DNA of 64,000 nt from Spirochaetaceae bacterium (lineage in GTDB: Bacteria > Spirochaetota > Spirochaetia > SZUA-6 > DRHE01): NCBI GenBank assembly GCA_020353535.1, contig CP070696.1:2951598-3015597 (forward strand), given 5' to 3'. The translations under genes and the position numbers were made by a program. Numbering within the stretch: the first letter of the stretch is position 1; each line of letters begins with the position of its first letter. This document shows, in pieces, positions 14,962 to 23,366 of the stretch. The notes under the pieces were generated by a model. The model saw nothing but the letters and a program-made list of their open reading frames with translations, was not told the origin of the DNA and did not search any database.

Positions 14962-15023
14962 TACCCTCAGAAAAACAGGAAAATCTGAAGTTTTACCTCA
15001 GATTTTCCCCTCTACCACAGGGT
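14962..15023. repeat. Twin palindrome, copy 2; possible terminator of the leftward phospho-signalling operon
   Basis: Outer arms ACCCT (14963-14967) and AGGGT (15019-15023) flank a perfect 11-bp inner stem, GGAAAATCTGA (14978-14988) with TCAGATTTTCC (14998-15008). On the minus strand the stem is followed by TGTTTTTCTG, which makes a reasonable intrinsic terminator for the VWA-gene operon that ends at 15104. Confidence 0.6.
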
Positions 15024-15103: not shown

Positions 15104-16525
15104 TTATACCTCTCCGTCGTCGAAAACGATGGTAGCCCCGCCCACGTCGATCACGTCGCCGGGCTCGAGCACCTTGGTCTTCACCGGCTGGTTGTTGACG
15201 GTCAGGTCACCGGAACCCACGACCGTGTAGGCCTTGCTCTTGGCATCGTAGATCACGGTGGCGTGCTGTTCCTTGACGCTCGGATTACCCACGATGGTCA
15301 GGTCCGCATTGCGGCTGCCCCCGATCACGGTCTTGGCCGAGCTCAGAGGCATCACCCGGGTTTGAGCCCTGCCCACCCGCGTCTTCAGGACCTCGAGGGT
15401 CGCCGGGCCCCTCTTCTTCTCGAACTTCAGCAGAGAGATCAGCCACAACAGCACAAAGGCCAGCACGAAGGGGATGATCAGTAGCACACCGATCTTGGCC
15501 ATGGGAAGCCCGAAGACCGTGCTGGAAAAGTAGAAGCGGGTGGCCTGCTGGGACTGACCGCTTTGCTCAACCTGTACCCGCACAAACTTCTTCTCCGCGG
15601 GGGCCATAGTGGCTCGGTAGCCGATCAGGTATTCTCCGGCCACCTGTTCGTGGATGCGCTGATATACCCGGGCCAGCTCCTCCTGACTGCGAGCATCGAA
15701 CACGGTTCCGCCGGTTTCCACGGCTATCGCCTCCAGGTTGGGATCCTTCTGGTCGGCGAAGTTCACGGCGTACACCGAGATCCCCACCTCCTGACAGGCC
15801 TGGATCGGCTCGGTGTATCGATAGATCTTATCGCCGAACTCGGGATGGGGATTTCCCGCGTGCTGGAGGTACGGATAGTTCTCCCCGTCGGAGAGGATCA
15901 CTATGGCTCTACGGCCTCCGATGCCCTCGAAATCCTCGACCGCCAGGGTAAGGGAGGCGTACAGTTCGGTATAGGCCTGCTCCGAATCCGGCCGTTCGAT
16001 TCCCTCGAGAAAGCCCACGACCAGGCTCTTGTCACCGGAGGGTTCGGCCAGGAGAGTGTAGGAGGTGTTGTAGGAGCCCAGGCCGACGGTGTCCTTGGGT
16101 TGGGTCATGCTGCCTAGAAAGGTGCGGACCGCGTTTTTGGCATGGGTGATGCGCATGCGGCTGGTATCTTCGGTGGTGCGTCCCGCCATGGTATCGTACA
16201 TGCTCCCCGAGTTGTCCAGGAGCAGGAGAAAGGTGATCCCCTCGGCCGAAGCTGCCCGGGGCTTGAACTCGCTCAGACCTTCGATCCTTTCGAATTCTTT
16301 CCCATCTGGAGATTCGAAGATGGTAAAGCTGTCCGTTCCCAATCCCTGCACCGGTATCCCCAGATCATCGGTCACGCTCACGTACAGACGGACGGTTTGG
16401 CTGAGAAGCAGCCGGGAGGCGTCGATCTGGGATAGCCTCACGTTGTAGCCGAAGGCGGCGGCGGTCACGAACGACAAAACAAACAGCAACGCCGGCATAG
16501 ATATGATCCTTGTCTTCATCTTCAC
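15104..16525 (-). CDS. VWA-transmembrane-FHA protein
   Basis: The 473-residue protein has an N-terminal signal or anchor (ISMPALLFVLSFVTAAAFGY). A von Willebrand A domain with a complete MIDAS motif follows (LLLLDNSGSMYD near residue 100, then the Thr and Asp loops ending AIVILSDGENYP). A transmembrane helix (about 340-365, GVLLIIPFVLAFVLLWLISL) leads to a C-terminal FHA domain (about 378-470; GGSRNADLTI and PSVKEQHATV). The VWA part would be periplasmic and the phosphothreonine-binding FHA part cytoplasmic, giving a signal-coupled adhesion or scaffold module. Last gene of the leftward kinase operon, 7 bases after the membrane FHA gene. Confidence 0.9.
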   Translation of the reverse strand: MKMKTRIISMPALLFVLSFVTAAAFGYNVRLSQIDASRLLLSQTVRLYVSVTDDLGIPVQGLGTDSFTIFESPDGKEFERIEGLSEFKPRAASAEGITFLLLLDNSGSMYDTMAGRTTEDTSRMRITHAKNAVRTFLGSMTQPKDTVGLGSYNTSYTLLAEPSGDKSLVVGFLEGIERPDSEQAYTELYASLTLAVEDFEGIGGRRAIVILSDGENYPYLQHAGNPHPEFGDKIYRYTEPIQACQEVGISVYAVNFADQKDPNLEAIAVETGGTVFDARSQEELARVYQRIHEQVAGEYLIGYRATMAPAEKKFVRVQVEQSGQSQQATRFYFSSTVFGLPMAKIGVLLIIPFVLAFVLLWLISLLKFEKKRGPATLEVLKTRVGRAQTRVMPLSSAKTVIGGSRNADLTIVGNPSVKEQHATVIYDAKSKAYTVVGSGDLTVNNQPVKTKVLEPGDVIDVGGATIVFDDGEV

Positions 16526-16532
16526 TTCCCCC

Positions 16533-17429
16533 CTACTCGTAGCTGTAGAACAGCTTGGCCGAACCGATCTTCAGGACATCCTCGTACTTGAGACGGTGCT
16601 CCTTGACCGGTCTGTCGTTTACCAGGACCGGGTATTTCGGTTCCAGATTGGTCAGCAGCGCTTCGCCCTTGCGGAAGCGAATTTGCACCTGGCGATCCGC
16701 CAGCTTCTCGTACGGCTCCAGGGTGATTTGGTTGCGCCTGGCCCGGCCTATGCGTATGCGAGCCTCGTTGAGGATGAACTCCTTGCCCTTCAAGCGGCCG
16801 TTCAGCACCCTTAGGGTGCCGAAGGCCATGCTGCGCTCGATGATCCCGTAGAACAGGCCAATTGCCAGACCCAGAACGACCAGACCTATAAGCCGGAATG
16901 GAAGGAATTCAGGCAGATACAGCCGGGAGTACTCCAGAGCGAAGCCCCCGATCAGTCCTCCGATCAGCCCTCCGATCAGGCCGATGCCCAGCTTCTTTGC
17001 GGATGCGGCCCGGATGCCTTCGGCCGCCCCAACGAAGATCCCCAGAAAAGCCCAGCCTATGGCTCGGGCGATGGGCAGCCCAACGGTCTGGAAACTACGG
17101 TAGGAGTTCAGGAAAAGTCCGCCAATCAGGAACAGCACCGCCTGTCCGACCAGAAGACCGATGATTCCCCCGATTAGGCCGACGAGCGCTCCGACGACCA
17201 TGCCTACCAGGATCCTGCTCCCGACCCGGGCGAAGATCCCCGCTGCGGAACCGAAGAAGGCGCCCATAAGCAGGCCCACCGCCGCGCCCAGGACCGCAAC
17301 AAAGATCAGATAGGAGGGAAAGCGGGCTTGAATCCCTACGATCAGCTCGGTCAGCGGCCAGGCCGCCAATCCGCCCAATATTCCAAGACACAGCAGGATC
17401 ACTCTTCGTAGTCCTGTAGTCATAGGCAC
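16533..17429 (-). CDS. Glycine-rich polytopic membrane protein with C-terminal FHA domain
   Basis: Of the 298 residues, the first about 205 form several glycine-rich hydrophobic segments. They include repeated GLIGG units (IGLIGGLIGGLIGG near residue 150) and AVGLLMGAFFGSAAG, a glycine-zipper-like pattern. The C-terminal about 90 residues form an FHA domain (RIRIGRARRNQITLE near 225, DRQVQIRF, LVNDRPVKEHRLKYEDVLKIG). The usual FHA SxxH motif is replaced by ADRQV, so phosphothreonine binding is uncertain. It lies between the kinase and the VWA-FHA gene. Function unknown; a membrane scaffold controlled by the kinase is a plausible inference. Confidence 0.85.
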   Translation of the reverse strand: MPMTTGLRRVILLCLGILGGLAAWPLTELIVGIQARFPSYLIFVAVLGAAVGLLMGAFFGSAAGIFARVGSRILVGMVVGALVGLIGGIIGLLVGQAVLFLIGGLFLNSYRSFQTVGLPIARAIGWAFLGIFVGAAEGIRAASAKKLGIGLIGGLIGGLIGGFALEYSRLYLPEFLPFRLIGLVVLGLAIGLFYGIIERSMAFGTLRVLNGRLKGKEFILNEARIRIGRARRNQITLEPYEKLADRQVQIRFRKGEALLTNLEPKYPVLVNDRPVKEHRLKYEDVLKIGSAKLFYSYE

Positions 17430-17444
17430 CTCCCGTTTTTTGAT

Positions 17445-19338
<1,894 letters not shown>

Positions 19339-19346
<8 letters not shown>

Positions 19347-20265
19347 CGATCAGCTCTCGAAATGCCTCCCTGTCCAACTCCCGAATATCCCGATCCAGAT
19401 CGATCTGTCCCCCCGCCGGCAGTACGGCCACCACATAACGATCCGGATCGTGAATCTGTACGTAGCGCTCGTCGGAGCGAAGGTTGTAGCTTCCGTGGAC
19501 CGGGCGGTGTCCGCCGAAATGGTAGGCGGCCATGGCAGCCTCCGGGCCCAGGTAGTGCTCCAGCATCTGCTGAACGCTTCCCGGCTCCGCTTCGCCGTTG
19601 TCCGTCCAGGTCAGGCCGTACACCACCTGCGGCAGCCGGCGGTATTCTATGAGCTCATGCTTGGGGATGAACCAGGCCGGCTCGGCGTGGGAAGCCAAAA
19701 AGTTACCGCCCACGGCCAGAATGGGGAAGCTCTTCTCGAATTCGGCGTAGCTGTTGAGGATCTCCTCCCCGTAGAAGTGCTCCATGTAGATCCGCACCAT
19801 GAGCCCTTCGTTGGCGAATTTGAGGAAGGGATAGTTGCCTCCGCCCTGTTCGTTGGCGATGTTTTCGTGGTTGCCCTTGAGGAAGTGGAAGTGGTTCGGG
19901 AACTGCCTTTTGAGGGCCATTACCATCTCCATCACTCCGAGGCTCTCCCTCATCTCCTCATCCATGTGAATGTGTTTCCGATATCCGCCCTTGAACTCCT
20001 CCAAGGCCGCCTGCCAGCGCACAGCAGCCCTGCCTTCCGCGTGAAATCCGTCGCCCAGGCAGAGAAGCTGCAGCCTGCCGGCTGCCAATCGATCCACGGC
20101 GGCGACGCCCTGCTCGTCCTTGGAGGAGAGTACCGCCAAAACGAGCTCCATGCGAGCATGCAGATCCGGCACCACCACGGTCGGGATTTCCGGATCCAGG
20201 TACAACAGGCCACCGGGACGATCCTCCCTGTCCCGGGGCCGGATCTCCTCCGCTTCGCTGTCCAA
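19339..20265 (-). CDS. Metallophosphatase-like protein (PPP-type, degenerate motifs)
   Basis: The 308 residues given show a calcineurin-like phosphoesterase pattern with variant motifs. TVVVPDLHARME replaces GDxHG, LCLGDGFHAEGR replaces GDxxDRG, and FLKGNHENIAN keeps GNHE; ASHAEPAWF and FGGHRPVHGSY supply later His ligands. By position it should reverse the adjacent kinase. The start is uncertain. TTG at 20265 is the first ordinary start codon, but coding-like sequence continues upstream in frame to about 20379-20409 with no ATG, GTG or TTG. A CTG at 20379, 10 bases after GGAG, would give 346 residues. Confidence 0.75.
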
Positions 20266-20386
20266 GACCTGGACGGCAGCCAGGATTTCCTCCTGAAGCT
20301 CCGTGGATTCCGGAGGTCCAGTGCGGCCGTAGATTCGCCTCAGCTTGCTGATAAGGTCGGTTGTTGTTGAGGGTTCCAGTTTTAGT

Positions 20387-20917
20387 TTACTCCAAATCGA
20401 GGTCCTTGTTCACCTCGACGAATCCTTCCGCCAGGATCATGGTCGCCTTGGTGATCTGTTCCTCCTGCTCCTCCGGCTCCAGGTCCCCCGTGGTTACGGC
20501 GATCTTGAAAATCGGGGAGGAGCTCTGGATGGGTCCGGGAGAGAAGCGCACGGGCTCGCCCACCTGTACGTCGCTCGCCAGCTGGGAGTTCTCCTTGCTG
20601 GCCGTTTCCGGCACATCCTGGCGCAGACCGATGCTGGCGTACTGGACTGTGCGTCCCTCCTCTATGACGGGGCCGATGTTCAGCAGTGACCCTGAGTAGG
20701 TCATTGCCAGGCAGCCTTGCTCGTCATCCTGATCGAGCTCCTCGACCTCGGCCATGTTCATCTCGGCCAGCTGGTTTTCGAACAGCTCCTTCTTGTCCAG
20801 CCAGCCTCTGGCAATCATCTCCACAGATTCCTCGTTGTCCGGCAAGCCTGAGGACTTGGTGATCTGTCGAATATGATCCTGTACTTCCGCGGGAATTTGA
20901 TCCAGGTACTCGCCCAT
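20387..20917 (-). CDS. Conserved unknown protein, paralogue of the HU-fused protein at 21389
   Basis: The 176-residue product aligns along its whole length with residues 1-175 of the protein at 21389-22243. Shared blocks are ITxSSGLPDxEES, TYSGSLLNIG versus SYSGSLISLG, QYASIGLRxDVP and EEQxxxIxxATxxLxxGFV. No enzymatic motif is visible and it has no membrane segment. It is first in the leftward phosphatase-kinase-FHA operon. I chose ATG at 20917 because GAGGAGGAA precedes it directly; a longer frame begins at 20968. A -10 box TATACT reads on the minus strand at about 20956-20951. Function unknown. Confidence 0.85.
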   Translation of the reverse strand: MGEYLDQIPAEVQDHIRQITKSSGLPDNEESVEMIARGWLDKKELFENQLAEMNMAEVEELDQDDEQGCLAMTYSGSLLNIGPVIEEGRTVQYASIGLRQDVPETASKENSQLASDVQVGEPVRFSPGPIQSSSPIFKIAVTTGDLEPEEQEEQITKATMILAEGFVEVNKDLDLE

Positions 20918-21024
20918 GGGTTCCTCCTCGTGCTCTAGTGTTGCTAATAGTATAACCCACCTTTTCAAGTTTTTCCCTTGTTTCTTTGCCGGGATTGAGT
21001 AGACTTATATCAGGAGGATGAACT

Positions 21025-21396
21025 ATGGAGCCGGATAATCTTCCGCCGGAGGTGTATCTGGAAATCCTGAATGGTGATCGGGAGGGGGAAATGTTTCCCA
21101 TCACCCGCAAGACCGTCACCATCGGACGGGACGCCCAATGCGACCTCCATCTTGCCGATCCCTACGTTTCCCGAAAGCACTCCCAGATCGTGTTCCGGGG
21201 TGATCACTTCACCATGATGGATCTGGGCAGCCTGAACAAAACCCGGGTCAAGGAGAAGGAGTACATTCAGAAGAACCTCAAGGATGGCTATCTGATCACC
21301 CTGGGAAAGACGCAGCTGCGTTTCCTCTGGCCGAACGCCAAGGCCTGGCTGGCGGAGCACGGAATCGAGGAGGAACAGGAGGCTGCTGATGAGTGA
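21025..21396 (+). CDS. FHA domain protein
   Basis: The 123-residue protein is almost entirely one forkhead-associated domain. All canonical residues are present: TIGRDAQCDLHL, YVSRKHSQIVF and DLGSLNKTRVKEK. It should bind phosphothreonine peptides in the cytoplasm. It begins 107 bases from the oppositely oriented conserved-protein gene, has a strong RBS (AGGAGG at 21012-21017), and overlaps the HU-fusion gene by 8 bases, which indicates coupled translation. A natural substrate or partner of the kinase at 17445-19346. Confidence 0.93.
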   Translation: MEPDNLPPEVYLEILNGDREGEMFPITRKTVTIGRDAQCDLHLADPYVSRKHSQIVFRGDHFTMMDLGSLNKTRVKEKEYIQKNLKDGYLITLGKTQLRFLWPNAKAWLAEHGIEEEQEAADE

Positions 21397-22243
21397 TGAG
21401 ATTCGAGAGCTCTCGGCCACGGTCCGCTCCCACCTCAAGAAGATCACCCGCAGCTCGGGCCTTCCCGATACCGAGGAGTCCTTCCAAAAGATGGTTGCGG
21501 TCTGGTTGGAGAAGAAGAAGATGTTCGAGGGGCAGATCCGGGCTCTGGACATGGAGGAAGTAGATTCCTTTTCCAAGGACGATCCGCGAGGAGCGCTGCT
21601 TCTGTCCTACTCAGGTTCGCTGATCAGCCTGGGAACCCTTTCTCCCGGTGGTAGACGGGTGGAGTACGCCAGCATCTCTCTGCGTGCCGATGTGCCCCAC
21701 CTGGCGGTCACGGAGGGAAGCGCATTGGCTGCGGACATACGCATCGACAGTGAGGCAGAGTTCTCAAGCGGAAAGGTACGCAGCACCTCCAGCCTTCTGA
21801 AGATCGCCGTCTGCGGGACTGAGGTGAGCCCGGAGGAGCAGGAGAAGCGCATCCGGGAAGCTACGATCTTTCTGACCAACGGCTTCGTCAAGATCAACAG
21901 GACCGTTCTCTCTACGGGGGCGGATCTGCCCGATCAGTTCACCAGCCAGGCGATCATCGCCTACCTGGCCAGGAAAAATGGGCTGACTCAGAAACAGGCC
22001 CGCCAGATCACCAGCGACTATCTGACCATGATCGAATCGGGCATGATCCTGGGGGAGCGGGTGCCGCTGGGAAAGATCGGTCGTTTGTTTCTCAAGAAGC
22101 GCCCCCCCCGCAAAGCTCGGGTGGTGGTCAATCCGGCCACGGGTAAGGAGATCACCGTTCCCGCCCGTCCGGAGGAGGCGGTTCCCAAGATCTCCTTCAG
22201 CCGTTCCATGAAAGAGCGAGCTCGCCAGGTCGAGATGGGATAG
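21389..22243 (+). CDS. Conserved unknown domain fused to an HU/IHF-like DNA-binding domain
   Basis: Of 284 residues, the first about 175 are paralogous to the protein at 20387-20917. The C-terminal about 95 residues resemble HU: a two-helix start (AIIAYLARKNGLTQKQARQI), GERVPLGKIGRLFLKKRP in the place of HU's GFGTF segment, and NPATGKEITVPARPEEAVP matching the HU arm and Pro loop. DNA binding is therefore likely. Overlap with the FHA gene suggests that a phospho-reader and a nucleoid-type protein are made together. This combination, next to a kinase and phosphatase, suggests phosphorylation-linked control of chromosome structure or transcription; that is inference. Confidence 0.88.
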   Translation: MSDEIRELSATVRSHLKKITRSSGLPDTEESFQKMVAVWLEKKKMFEGQIRALDMEEVDSFSKDDPRGALLLSYSGSLISLGTLSPGGRRVEYASISLRADVPHLAVTEGSALAADIRIDSEAEFSSGKVRSTSSLLKIAVCGTEVSPEEQEKRIREATIFLTNGFVKINRTVLSTGADLPDQFTSQAIIAYLARKNGLTQKQARQITSDYLTMIESGMILGERVPLGKIGRLFLKKRPPRKARVVVNPATGKEITVPARPEEAVPKISFSRSMKERARQVEMG

Positions 22244-22286: not shown

Positions 22287-23366
22287 ATGAATTGGCAAAT
22301 CCTTGTGGAAAATTGGCGGGAATTTCTGTTCGGTGGAGGGCTCCTGGCTGGCGCAGTTCTGGTCGGCATCCTCCTGCACCTCCTCCTTTCTCTGATTGCT
22401 GGAATCGTACTGCGACGGAGCGAGGAGCGAAATCAAATTGTCCTTCCCTCGGTCATCCGCCACGCACGAGGTCCCCTGCGATTGGGGCTTCCCCTGCTTG
22501 CGTTGGTAATCGTGCTTCCCTTTGTCTCCCTCCCGGATCATCTGCAAAATTTGCTGAGGCACGGGATCAGCATTCTCACGATCGTAACAGTCGCCTGGAT
22601 GGTAGCCCGCTCCGGCTCCGTTTTGGAGGATTACCTGTTCGAGAAATACAGACTCGACGCCGAGGATAATCTCAAAGCCCGCAAAATCCACACTCAAACA
22701 CGGTATATGAAACGGGTATTCGCCGTTATCGTCGCTGTGATAGCCCTGGCCCTGATCCTGATGAACTTCGATAGGGTCAGACAGCTGGGTACGACCATCC
22801 TGGCCTCAGCGGGTATTGTGGGCATCGTACTCGGATTCGCCTCCCAGCGTTCGATCGCCCTGCTGTTCGCCGGATTCCAGGTGGCCTTGACCCAGCCGAT
22901 CCGTATCGACGATGTAGTGATCGTCGAGAACGAGTGGGGGCGAATCGAGGAGATCACCCTCACCTACGTTGTGGTTCGTATCTGGGACAAGCGCAGACTC
23001 GTCGTACCCATCTCCTATTTTATTGAAAAACCCTTCCAGAATTGGACCCGGGTCTCCGCCGATCTGCTTGGTACTGTATATCTGTACTGCGACTACACCG
23101 TTCCCGTGCAGTCTATCCGCGATGAGCTGCAAGGCATTCTCGAGCAAAGCGAGGATTGGGACGGGGAGGTCTGTGGGATCCAGGTGACCGATACCAGCGA
23201 ACATACGATGTCGGTGCGTGCTCTGGTGAGTGCAAGCGATGCCTCCCGTCTTTGGAATCTGCGCTGTCAGGTGCGGGAGCGTTTGATCGATTTCATCCGG
23301 AGGGAATTCCCGGAAAGCCTGCCCCGCTTCCGGGCGGAGCTCGGTCAACAGGCGGATACGTCCTGA
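22287..23366 (+). CDS. Mechanosensitive ion channel family protein (MscS)
   Basis: The 359-residue protein has three to four N-terminal transmembrane helices. A pore-lining TM3 follows (TTILASAGIVGIVLGFASQRSIALLFAG, Gly/Ala-packed, about residues 170-195) and then the beta domain signature QPIRIDDVVIVENEWGRIEEITLTYVVVRIWDKR. The C-terminal alpha/beta region ends FPESLPRFRAEL. It is larger than E. coli MscS (286) because of extra N-terminal helices. It releases solutes on hypo-osmotic shock. Single-gene unit lying between the HU-fusion gene and the kor operon. Confidence 0.93.
   Translation: MNWQILVENWREFLFGGGLLAGAVLVGILLHLLLSLIAGIVLRRSEERNQIVLPSVIRHARGPLRLGLPLLALVIVLPFVSLPDHLQNLLRHGISILTIVTVAWMVARSGSVLEDYLFEKYRLDAEDNLKARKIHTQTRYMKRVFAVIVAVIALALILMNFDRVRQLGTTILASAGIVGIVLGFASQRSIALLFAGFQVALTQPIRIDDVVIVENEWGRIEEITLTYVVVRIWDKRRLVVPISYFIEKPFQNWTRVSADLLGTVYLYCDYTVPVQSIRDELQGILEQSEDWDGEVCGIQVTDTSEHTMSVRALVSASDASRLWNLRCQVRERLIDFIRREFPESLPRFRAELGQQADTS

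What the first reader, a model, noticed from the sequence alone, without database searches (positions are those of the whole stretch)
15104..22243. Ser/Thr kinase-phosphatase-FHA-VWA-HU island, a possible undescribed phospho-signalling system
Seven consecutive genes on two facing-away operons combine a transmembrane kinase with a PEGA-like tail, a phosphatase-like protein, three FHA proteins (one soluble, one on a glycine-rich membrane protein, one on a VWA surface protein) and two copies of an unknown domain, one fused to an HU-like DNA binder. All share tight spacing. The set could carry a cell-surface signal through phosphothreonine readers to DNA. I know of no described system with this composition.
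Basis: partly seen in the sequence, partly recalled or inferred. Interest (0 to 1): 0.78.

Follow-up and report, generated by a model that had tools for sequence, protein, structure and literature searches.

The report
Spirochaete kinase-phosphatase membrane signalling operon
A set of genes that many spirochaetes have kept together in the same order looks like a complete protein-phosphorylation signalling unit, reaching from the cell envelope to a possible DNA-binding protein; searches of open papers turned up no description of it.

Summary
Five minus-strand genes (unknown domain U, PPP-type phosphatase P, transmembrane Ser/Thr kinase K, glycine-rich membrane FHA protein G, VWA-FHA protein V) face two plus-strand genes (soluble FHA; U-domain fused to HU). 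The order U-P-K-G-V is whole in 33 of the 40 sampled genomes with G (17 families, 27 genera); 6 more agree but are cut by contig ends; 1 departs. No other flanking family is shared by over 5 of 59 loci.

Corrections: only soluble FHA proteins keep the phosphothreonine-binding residues (16 of 16); the membrane FHA domains never have both (0 of 33, 0 of 34). No PEGA domain was found. The core is older: 5 genomes have P-K without G/V, and in another family a small FHA gene adjoins P in 48 of 49 P genomes, with K next in 11 of 11 loci read.

Best reading: envelope-sensing kinase/phosphatase switch with FHA readers and a probable UD-HU DNA output; targets unknown. Analogues: Sulfolobus Arn, T6SS PpkA/PppA, OdhI/GarA. 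New variant of a known kind.

The parts
15104..16525 (-). V: hydrophobic N-terminus, predicted extracytoplasmic VWA with MIDAS motif, membrane segment about 339-370, cytosolic FHA-fold domain that lacks the pThr-binding residues
   Evidence: Pfam VWA_2 and FHA over cut-off; MIDAS D, S, S, T, D in 33-34 of 34 orthologues; FHA R+S in 0 of 34; hydropathy
16533..17429 (-). G: glycine-rich multi-pass membrane protein with a C-terminal FHA-fold domain that lacks the pThr-binding residues
   Evidence: Pfam Yop-YscD_cpl and FHA over cut-off; FHA R+S in 0 of 33; orthologues in 40 of 392 genomes; fused to V in 4 loci
17445..19346 (-). K: Ser/Thr kinase, one membrane segment (304-330), extracytoplasmic tail of about 300 residues that is poorly conserved
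   Evidence: Pfam Pkinase E 7.6e-55; catalytic residues in 39-40 of 40 and activation-loop Thr169 in 40 of 40; only Pkinase match in the genome at E 0.001
19339..20379 (-). P: PPP-type metallophosphatase with intact catalytic residues; probable CTG start at 20379 (first ATG/GTG/TTG start at 20265)
   Evidence: Pfam Metallophos 23.3 bits, cut-off 21.5; nine motif residues invariant in 38 of 38; start inferred
20387..20917 (-). U: short copy of the undescribed domain UD (ATG start at 20917 inferred; the listed ORF starts at 20968)
   Evidence: UD in 47 of 392 genomes by profile; no consistent Pfam, PHROG or PDB sequence relative; start conserved in L004 and L005
20918..21024 (.). divergent intergenic region between the two transcription units
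   Evidence: sequence and 3-way alignment
21025..21396 (+). soluble FHA protein with all pThr-binding residues
   Evidence: Pfam FHA 56 bits; R, S, H in 16 of 16 soluble FHA proteins found in the loci
21389..22243 (+). UD-HU: UD fused to an HU/IHF DNA-binding domain; overlaps the FHA gene by 8 bp
   Evidence: Pfam Bac_DNA_binding E 2.2e-13; in 35 long UD proteins, core Gly 32 of 35, arm Pro 24 of 35
14977..15009 (-). terminator-like stem-loop (15 pairs) with a T run after V, before the pantothenate kinase gene
   Evidence: pattern scan; consensus match only, and the scan found fewer such sites (4) than shuffles give on average (6.9)

Best explanation
This is a dedicated reversible phosphorylation module. 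SHOWN from sequence: an intact kinase with a membrane segment and a long tail, an intact PPP-type phosphatase beside it, a membrane VWA protein with an intact metal-binding MIDAS motif and an FHA fold, a glycine-rich membrane protein with an FHA fold, a canonical soluble FHA protein, and two UD proteins, one carrying HU; the order of five of them is conserved over many families. INFERRED: V and G form a membrane complex with K that senses an envelope ligand, metal or mechanical state through VWA and the kinase tail; their degenerate FHA folds are docking parts, not phosphate readers. K, switched on through its activation-loop Thr, phosphorylates cytosolic clients, P reverses this, and canonical soluble FHA proteins (the one in this locus, and the conserved 'DTI-FHA' family found elsewhere in this genome) read or carry the mark. 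U and UD-HU are the clients or outputs: U competes with or regulates UD-HU, whose HU arm binds DNA and changes expression or chromosome architecture.
For: Order U-P-K-G-V whole in 33 of 40 genomes, 17 families, 27 genera, and 6 more cut by contig ends. No other flanking family in more than 5 of 59 loci. All 40 genomes with G have UD. Catalytic residues: P 38 of 38, K 39-40 of 40, MIDAS 33-34 of 34. K is the only Pkinase match in this genome. In 5 genomes with UD and P but no G, P and K are still adjacent, 5 of 5. In family f3, an FHA gene lies within 800 bp of P in 48 of 49 P genomes, with K next to P in 11 of 11 f3 loci read. UD-HU lies divergently beside U in 17 of the 33 whole loci (in the window with the FHA gene between). 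Pairwise distances of P, K, V, U and UD-HU correlate at r 0.72-0.90, not corrected for shared ancestry and without a control gene.
Against: No substrate, ligand or DNA target is shown. UD-HU faces V in 2 of the 33 whole loci and is unlinked, cut off or not found in 14. UD occurs in 7 genomes without G, UD-HU in at least two of them, so UD does not need the full complex. 53 of 96 genomes with P have no UD match, 49 of them in family f3. Five of 16 phosphatase loci read away from the operon have no kinase beside P. The HU arm Pro is missing in 11 of 35 UD-HU proteins. The UD fold is unsolved (pLDDT 45 and 55).
Confidence: 0.5

Rival explanations
1. The module is a post-translational envelope regulator (wall growth, motility or outer-membrane homeostasis). 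UD-HU is only a local autoregulator or an accessory protein, not the main output.
For: UD-HU is not divergently beside U in 16 of 33 whole loci, and eleven of the 40 G genomes gave only one UD place. V, G and K put much of the conserved system in the membrane. In two divergent P-K loci (L135, L138) a RodA/FtsW gene lies within about 4 kb.
Against: The two UD proteins are clear paralogues and both occur in most operon genomes. All 35 long copies keep an HU-length tail and 32 of 35 its core Gly.
Confidence: 0.25
2. The ancestral and main function is an OdhI/GarA-like switch: K phosphorylates the N-terminal Thr of the DTI-FHA protein, P reverses it, and the FHA protein binds target enzymes. U, G and V are sensors or adaptors added later.
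For: DTI-FHA has an invariant N-terminal Thr in 13 of 13 aligned members, 78 of its 82 genomes have P, and it adjoins P in 48 of 49 P genomes of family f3. OdhI/GarA carry an N-terminal phosphorylatable ETTS motif and an FHA domain that docks on the kinase (PMC8546545, passages).
Against: 18 of 96 phosphatase genomes have no DTI-FHA match at E 1e-18. The motif is not ETTS. It does not explain UD-HU.
Confidence: 0.15
3. It controls assembly of a secretion or surface machine, as the T6SS threonine-phosphorylation pathway does.
For: Kinase, phosphatase, FHA and VWA are the ingredients of PpkA/PppA/Fha (PpkA/PppA from the abstract of PMC3224232; Fha recalled). G matches the SctD cytoplasmic-domain model over cut-off, though V does not and the soluble FHA matches it best.
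Against: The families shared by 4-5 loci look, by my reading of their sequences, like a response regulator, an aminotransferase, an ABC transporter and an RND pump. The phosphatase matches Metallophos, not PP2C. TagH and SctD full-length models score far below cut-off. No secretion model was run on the flanks.
Confidence: 0.07
4. The seven genes are a chance neighbourhood.
For: None found.
Against: Conserved order over 17 families.
Confidence: 0.01

Closest known systems
Sulfolobus archaellum regulatory network (ArnA FHA, ArnB vWA, kinases ArnC/ArnD, phosphatase PP2A)
   Same: Ser/Thr kinase, PP2A phosphatase (PPP class by recall), FHA protein and vWA protein act together, with output on DNA/transcription (PMC6509490 abstract and introduction; PMC7472852 and PMC10470591 abstracts; ArnC/ArnD from a search listing of PMC5300886)
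   Different: Archaeal. Here VWA is predicted extracytoplasmic and fused to a degenerate FHA fold, a glycine-rich membrane FHA protein and UD/UD-HU are present, and the genes form a conserved operon
T6SS threonine phosphorylation pathway (PpkA, PppA, Fha1)
   Same: Kinase, phosphatase, FHA and VWA ingredients; [quoted passage not shown] VWA in PpkA from PMC1262709 passages; Fha1 recalled)
   Different: PP2C phosphatase there (recalled) and VWA within the kinase; here a PPP-type phosphatase and a separate VWA-FHA protein
Mycobacterial PknA/PknB-PstP-FhaA/FhaB cluster (recalled; clustering noted in PMC1262709 passages)
   Same: Kinase, phosphatase and FHA genes in one cluster; K scores 284 bits with the PASTA kinase model over its kinase domain. 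A RodA/FtsW gene lies near P-K in two divergent loci (L135, L138)
   Different: No PASTA domain found and below that model's cut-off of 450; different phosphatase class; no such neighbour shared by more than 5 of 59 operon loci
OdhI/GarA FHA switch
   Same: Small FHA protein linked to a Ser/Thr kinase; DTI-FHA has a conserved N-terminal Thr
   Different: Window FHA scores 52 against a cut-off of 200 and lacks the N-terminal motif, which is in DTI-FHA in another form
HU/IHF nucleoid proteins
   Same: C-terminal part of UD-HU matches Bac_DNA_binding over cut-off
   Different: Fused to UD; the genome has one other HU match

Membership tests
PPP / calcineurin-like metallophosphatases | Metal-ligand and catalytic motifs D-x-H, GD, GNH(E), H, H | tested here: met
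   D34, H36, D72, R79, N132, H133, H193, H253, R254 invariant in 38 of 38; Pfam Metallophos just over cut-off; nearest solved structures only weak, E 0.045
Hanks-type Ser/Thr kinases | Lys, Glu, HRD, Asn, DFG and activation-loop Thr | tested here: met
   39-40 of 40 for K, E, HRD, N and D; Thr169 40 of 40
Phosphothreonine-binding FHA: soluble FHA protein | GR, SxxH and N motifs | tested here: met
   R, S, H in 16 of 16
Phosphothreonine-binding FHA: G and V membrane proteins | GR and SxxH motifs | tested here: not met
   R and S together in 0 of 33 (G) and 0 of 34 (V); the SxxH His alone is kept in 26 of 33 and 20 of 34; FHA fold still matched by Pfam
MIDAS-type VWA | DxSxS, T, D | tested here: met
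   33-34 of 34
PEGA-tail kinases | PEGA domain in the extracytoplasmic tail | tested here: not met
   No PEGA match at E 0.01 in any of 31 kinase tails; a diverged PEGA-like fold is not excluded
PASTA (PknB-type) kinases | PASTA repeats outside | tested here: not met
   No PASTA match in Pfam; NF033483 284 bits, cut-off 450
T6SS PpkA/PppA/Fha pathway | PP2C phosphatase (recalled) | tested here: not met
   The phosphatase matches Metallophos only
T6SS PpkA/PppA/Fha pathway | Location in a T6SS cluster | tested here: inconclusive
   No flanking family shared by more than 5 of 59 loci, but no T6SS model was run on the flanks or the genome
Arn network | Kinase phosphorylates FHA and vWA proteins; phosphatase dissociates the complex | not testable with these tools
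   Needs biochemistry
OdhI/GarA switch | N-terminal phosphorylatable ETTS before the FHA domain | tested here: not met
   Window FHA has no such motif; DTI-FHA has DxTI instead
HU/IHF DNA-binding fold (UD-HU) | HU domain with GxxG core and NP-TG arm | tested here: met
   Pfam over cut-off; core G 32 of 35, arm R 31, N 22, P 24, T 30, G 32 of 35
HU-like origin of UD | Profile similarity of UD to HU | tested here: inconclusive
   hhalign probability 0.2%; lack of similarity does not exclude a shared fold
Anti-phage kinase systems (PADLOC) | Specific partner genes besides the kinase | tested here: not met
   Only K hits, with many kinase models (PD-T4-6, mad6 and others); the other 6 of 7 proteins have no match
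TerY-P triad (recalled) | TerY-type VWA, PP2C phosphatase and kinase | not tested
   Recalled only; the phosphatase class already differs

The most novel reading that the evidence does not exclude
A spirochaete signalling pathway in which an envelope complex with metal-binding VWA and non-reading FHA scaffolds drives a kinase/PPP-phosphatase switch onto a new domain (UD) whose HU-fused form acts directly on the chromosome: a Ser/Thr-kinase-to-nucleoid-protein pathway with a purpose-built antagonist pair (U and UD-HU).
Probability: 0.3. Interest if true: 0.8.

Novelty: new variant of a known kind. Interest (0 to 1): 0.6.

Why it matters
I found little on Ser/Thr kinase signalling in spirochaetes in the searches made; a 2005 survey found no such kinases in Treponema pallidum and Borrelia burgdorferi (PMC1262709, passage). 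Here is a compact, widely conserved module that in this genome holds the only Pkinase match, with its own phosphatase, a canonical reader and a protein family (UD) that Pfam does not cover. It makes testable how a bacterial kinase might act on a nucleoid-type protein, and what FHA folds do once they can no longer read phosphothreonine.

Tried and rejected
Rejected: chance neighbourhood; PEGA tail; three phosphothreonine readers; anti-phage system (kinase models only); UD as a recognisable HU.

Led nowhere: UD structure. Foldseek had no match at E 0.001 or better, and VIA-align Z was at most 3.7, with EGO/MglB/Ragulator and GAF chains recurring at Z 2.3-3.4; I draw nothing from it. Family libraries: of 42 UD members, Pfam gave 30 stray families, each in at most 2 members (best E 6e-4), none for the window's copy; PHROGs 8, each in at most 2; the PDB profile search found 8 sequences, best E 0.18. 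UD, G, P and V were not found on plasmids, nor UD in viral contigs. Other phyla could not be sampled (one search failed; the single genome-contig scan, used the full UD-HU protein and found 2 close relatives). No sigma-70-like promoter was found in the divergent region. My first register of the G FHA motif was off by one; one search corrects it.

Literature: nine searches ran, eight of them for this gene set and one for OdhI/GarA. None of the eight listed a description of it, judged from titles and abstract starts; the library holds open-licence papers only.

Rows dropped: orthologue matches under 200 bits for P, K, G and V were left out of the motif counts and the order table; one visible effect is that V of L049 is split into two reading frames and is counted as present. 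The four G-V fusions are counted under V, not G, in the motif counts. In the co-occurrence tables 7 weak phosphatase genomes (best E 5e-15 to 1e-5) were left out, 96 of 103 kept. Alignment A3 used 42 of 47 short UD copies and A4 33 of 35 long ones; the tree used 81 of 82. Flank clustering used naive ORFs and, for the window, only ORFs starting between 5,000 and 33,000. The co-occurrence tests ignore phylogeny.

One search was this report in a wrong format.


Full report
WHAT IS THERE. On the minus strand, in order of transcription: U (20917-20387), P (about 20379-19339), K (19346-17445), G (17429-16533), V (16525-15104). On the plus strand: a soluble FHA protein (21025-21396) and UD-HU (21389-22243). 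P and K overlap by 8 bp, and so do FHA and UD-HU. A 15-pair stem-loop with a T run at 15009-14977 lies after V, before a type III pantothenate kinase gene; this is weak evidence, as the scan found no excess over shuffles. Pfam assigns Pkinase, Metallophos, VWA, FHA (three proteins) and Bac_DNA_binding over cut-off, and nothing to U or to the first 175 or so residues of UD-HU.

CONSERVATION. The unknown domain, UD, was found in 45 of 392 sampled genomes of the phylum with the window sequence and in 47 of 392 with a profile. G was found in 40 of 392 at E 1e-10, all of them UD carriers. I took up to 20 kb around the matches and mapped orthologues. The order U-P-K-G-V on one strand is whole in 33 of the 40 G genomes (17 families, 27 genera); in four of these loci G and V are fused (L048, L052, L057, L085), and in L049 V is split into two frames. 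In 6 more (G016, G044, G074, G166, G320, G344) the pieces read are in this order and contig ends cut the rest. One genome departs (G023: U-K, a gap of 1.5 kb, G; no P found). The two named relatives agree: L005 whole, L004 cut by its contig end. Median pairwise identities are 34-45%, so this is not only close relatives. Among 59 loci (58 plus the window), no family other than those of the island occurs in more than 5. UD-HU stands divergently beside U in 17 of the 33 whole loci, faces V in 2, and is elsewhere, cut off or not found in 14; a soluble FHA gene was recognised in 11 of the 33.

WHICH PARTS WORK. Nine phosphatase motif residues are invariant in 38 of 38; kinase catalytic residues are kept in 39-40 of 40, with activation-loop Thr169 in 40 of 40; the MIDAS residues of V in 33-34 of 34. 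Soluble FHA proteins of the loci keep R, S and H in 16 of 16. G and V never have the R and S of the phosphothreonine pocket together (0 of 33 and 0 of 34), though the His is kept in 26 of 33 and 20 of 34 and the later Asn in 31 and 33. So two of the three FHA domains probably dock rather than read. Hydropathy gives one membrane segment in K, one plus a signal-like N-terminus in V, many in G, and none in P, U, FHA and UD-HU. The kinase tail has no PEGA match in any of 31.

UD. It has no consistent relative in Pfam, PHROGs or PDB sequences. Short copies and HU-fused copies are old paralogues: 32 of 35 long rows form one well-supported clade (100/100); the other 3 fall outside it with weak support, so one or two fusions are possible. 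HU features are mostly kept (core Gly 32 of 35, arm Pro 24 of 35). The fold could not be predicted with confidence.

THE OLDER CORE. Seven UD genomes lack G; 5 of them have the phosphatase, and in all 5 it sits next to a kinase, without U, G or V recognised beside it (L135, L137, L138, L140, L143). The phosphatase family is in 103 of 392 genomes, 96 after dropping 7 weak ones. Of 16 phosphatase loci read away from the operon, 11 (all in family f3) run FHA-P-K, and 5 have P without K. That small FHA protein ('DTI-FHA', my label) has the N-terminal pattern DxTI..S..G..L; T, I, S, G and L are invariant in 13 of 13 aligned members. It is in 82 of 392 genomes at E 1e-18; 78 of the 82 have the phosphatase, while 18 of 96 phosphatase genomes lack it. 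In family f3 it lies within 800 bp of P in 48 of the 49 P genomes; the 49th (G259) has P split into two frames and no DTI-FHA match. In the window's own genome DTI-FHA lies about 1.7 Mb away (L001). So the window's island looks like one elaboration of an older phosphatase-kinase core with FHA partners.

THE GENOME. The kinase is the only Pkinase match in this genome at E 0.001, and 5 of 10 other operon genomes tested also have one only. There is one other HU match besides UD-HU. The whole-genome Pfam FHA search reported three places: DTI-FHA, the soluble FHA and V.

MECHANISM. Shown: the parts, the intactness of their motifs and their linkage. Inferred: envelope sensing by V and the kinase tail, complex formation of K, G and V, client phosphorylation and FHA reading, and U/UD-HU as clients or outputs. 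The strongest argument for a DNA output is the HU fusion beside U; the strongest against is that UD-HU is often unlinked and that UD and UD-HU survive without G. Two divergent P-K loci have a RodA/FtsW gene within about 4 kb (L135, L138), and in four others related kinases are followed directly by a MutS2-like gene, three of them checked in Pfam; these hint at wall or DNA-linked settings but prove nothing.

COMPARISON. The Sulfolobus Arn network is the nearest functional analogue: FHA ArnA, vWA ArnB, kinase ArnC and PP2A govern complex assembly, archaellum genes and the DNA damage response (PMC6509490 abstract and introduction; PMC7472852 and PMC10470591 abstracts). The T6SS PpkA/PppA pair (PMC3224232 abstract) and OdhI/GarA (PMC8546545 passages) share ingredients. 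In what I read of them none has UD, the glycine-rich membrane FHA protein or this gene order, and several defining features tested were not met (Membership tests). Eight literature searches listed no description of this set. The verdict is a new variant of a known kind, with an undescribed protein family inside it.

Noticed in passing
L001:1360-1731 (own genome C1:1307568-1307903): An unlinked small FHA protein in the window's genome, 41-49% identical to 12 aligned members of the DTI-FHA family, which adjoins phosphatase and kinase in other spirochaetes; 78 of the 82 genomes with the family have the phosphatase.
   Followed up: yes
L146, L147, L148, L149, L154, L155, L156, L157, L158, L160, L161: FHA-phosphatase-kinase trio without UD, G or V in 11 of 11 family-f3 loci read, a minimal version of the system.
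   Followed up: partly
window 20265-20379: The phosphatase reading frame runs upstream of its first ATG/GTG/TTG start; a CTG at 20379 behind a GGAG is a likely start.
   Followed up: partly
L059, L064, L065, L066, L121-L125: Lone, divergent UD proteins in families f23 and f36 without the operon around them.
   Followed up: partly
L041:8807-10009: A genome with three UD copies has one beside a divergently placed 182-residue FHA gene.
   Followed up: no
L087:8814: A second kinase-like ORF (405 aa) follows the VWA-FHA gene directly.
   Followed up: no
L134, L136, L141, L142: In families f23 and f36 related kinases are followed directly by a MutS2-like gene; MutS_V and Smr domains confirmed in L134, L136 and L141, L142 by sequence resemblance only.
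   Followed up: partly
L135:7175-8503 and L138:3150-4478: RodA/FtsW genes lie near divergent phosphatase-kinase pairs (Pfam FTSW_RODA_SPOVE).
   Followed up: partly
window 22287-23366: MscS-type channel gene 43 bp after UD-HU; among the loci mapped its match was found only in L004.
   Followed up: no
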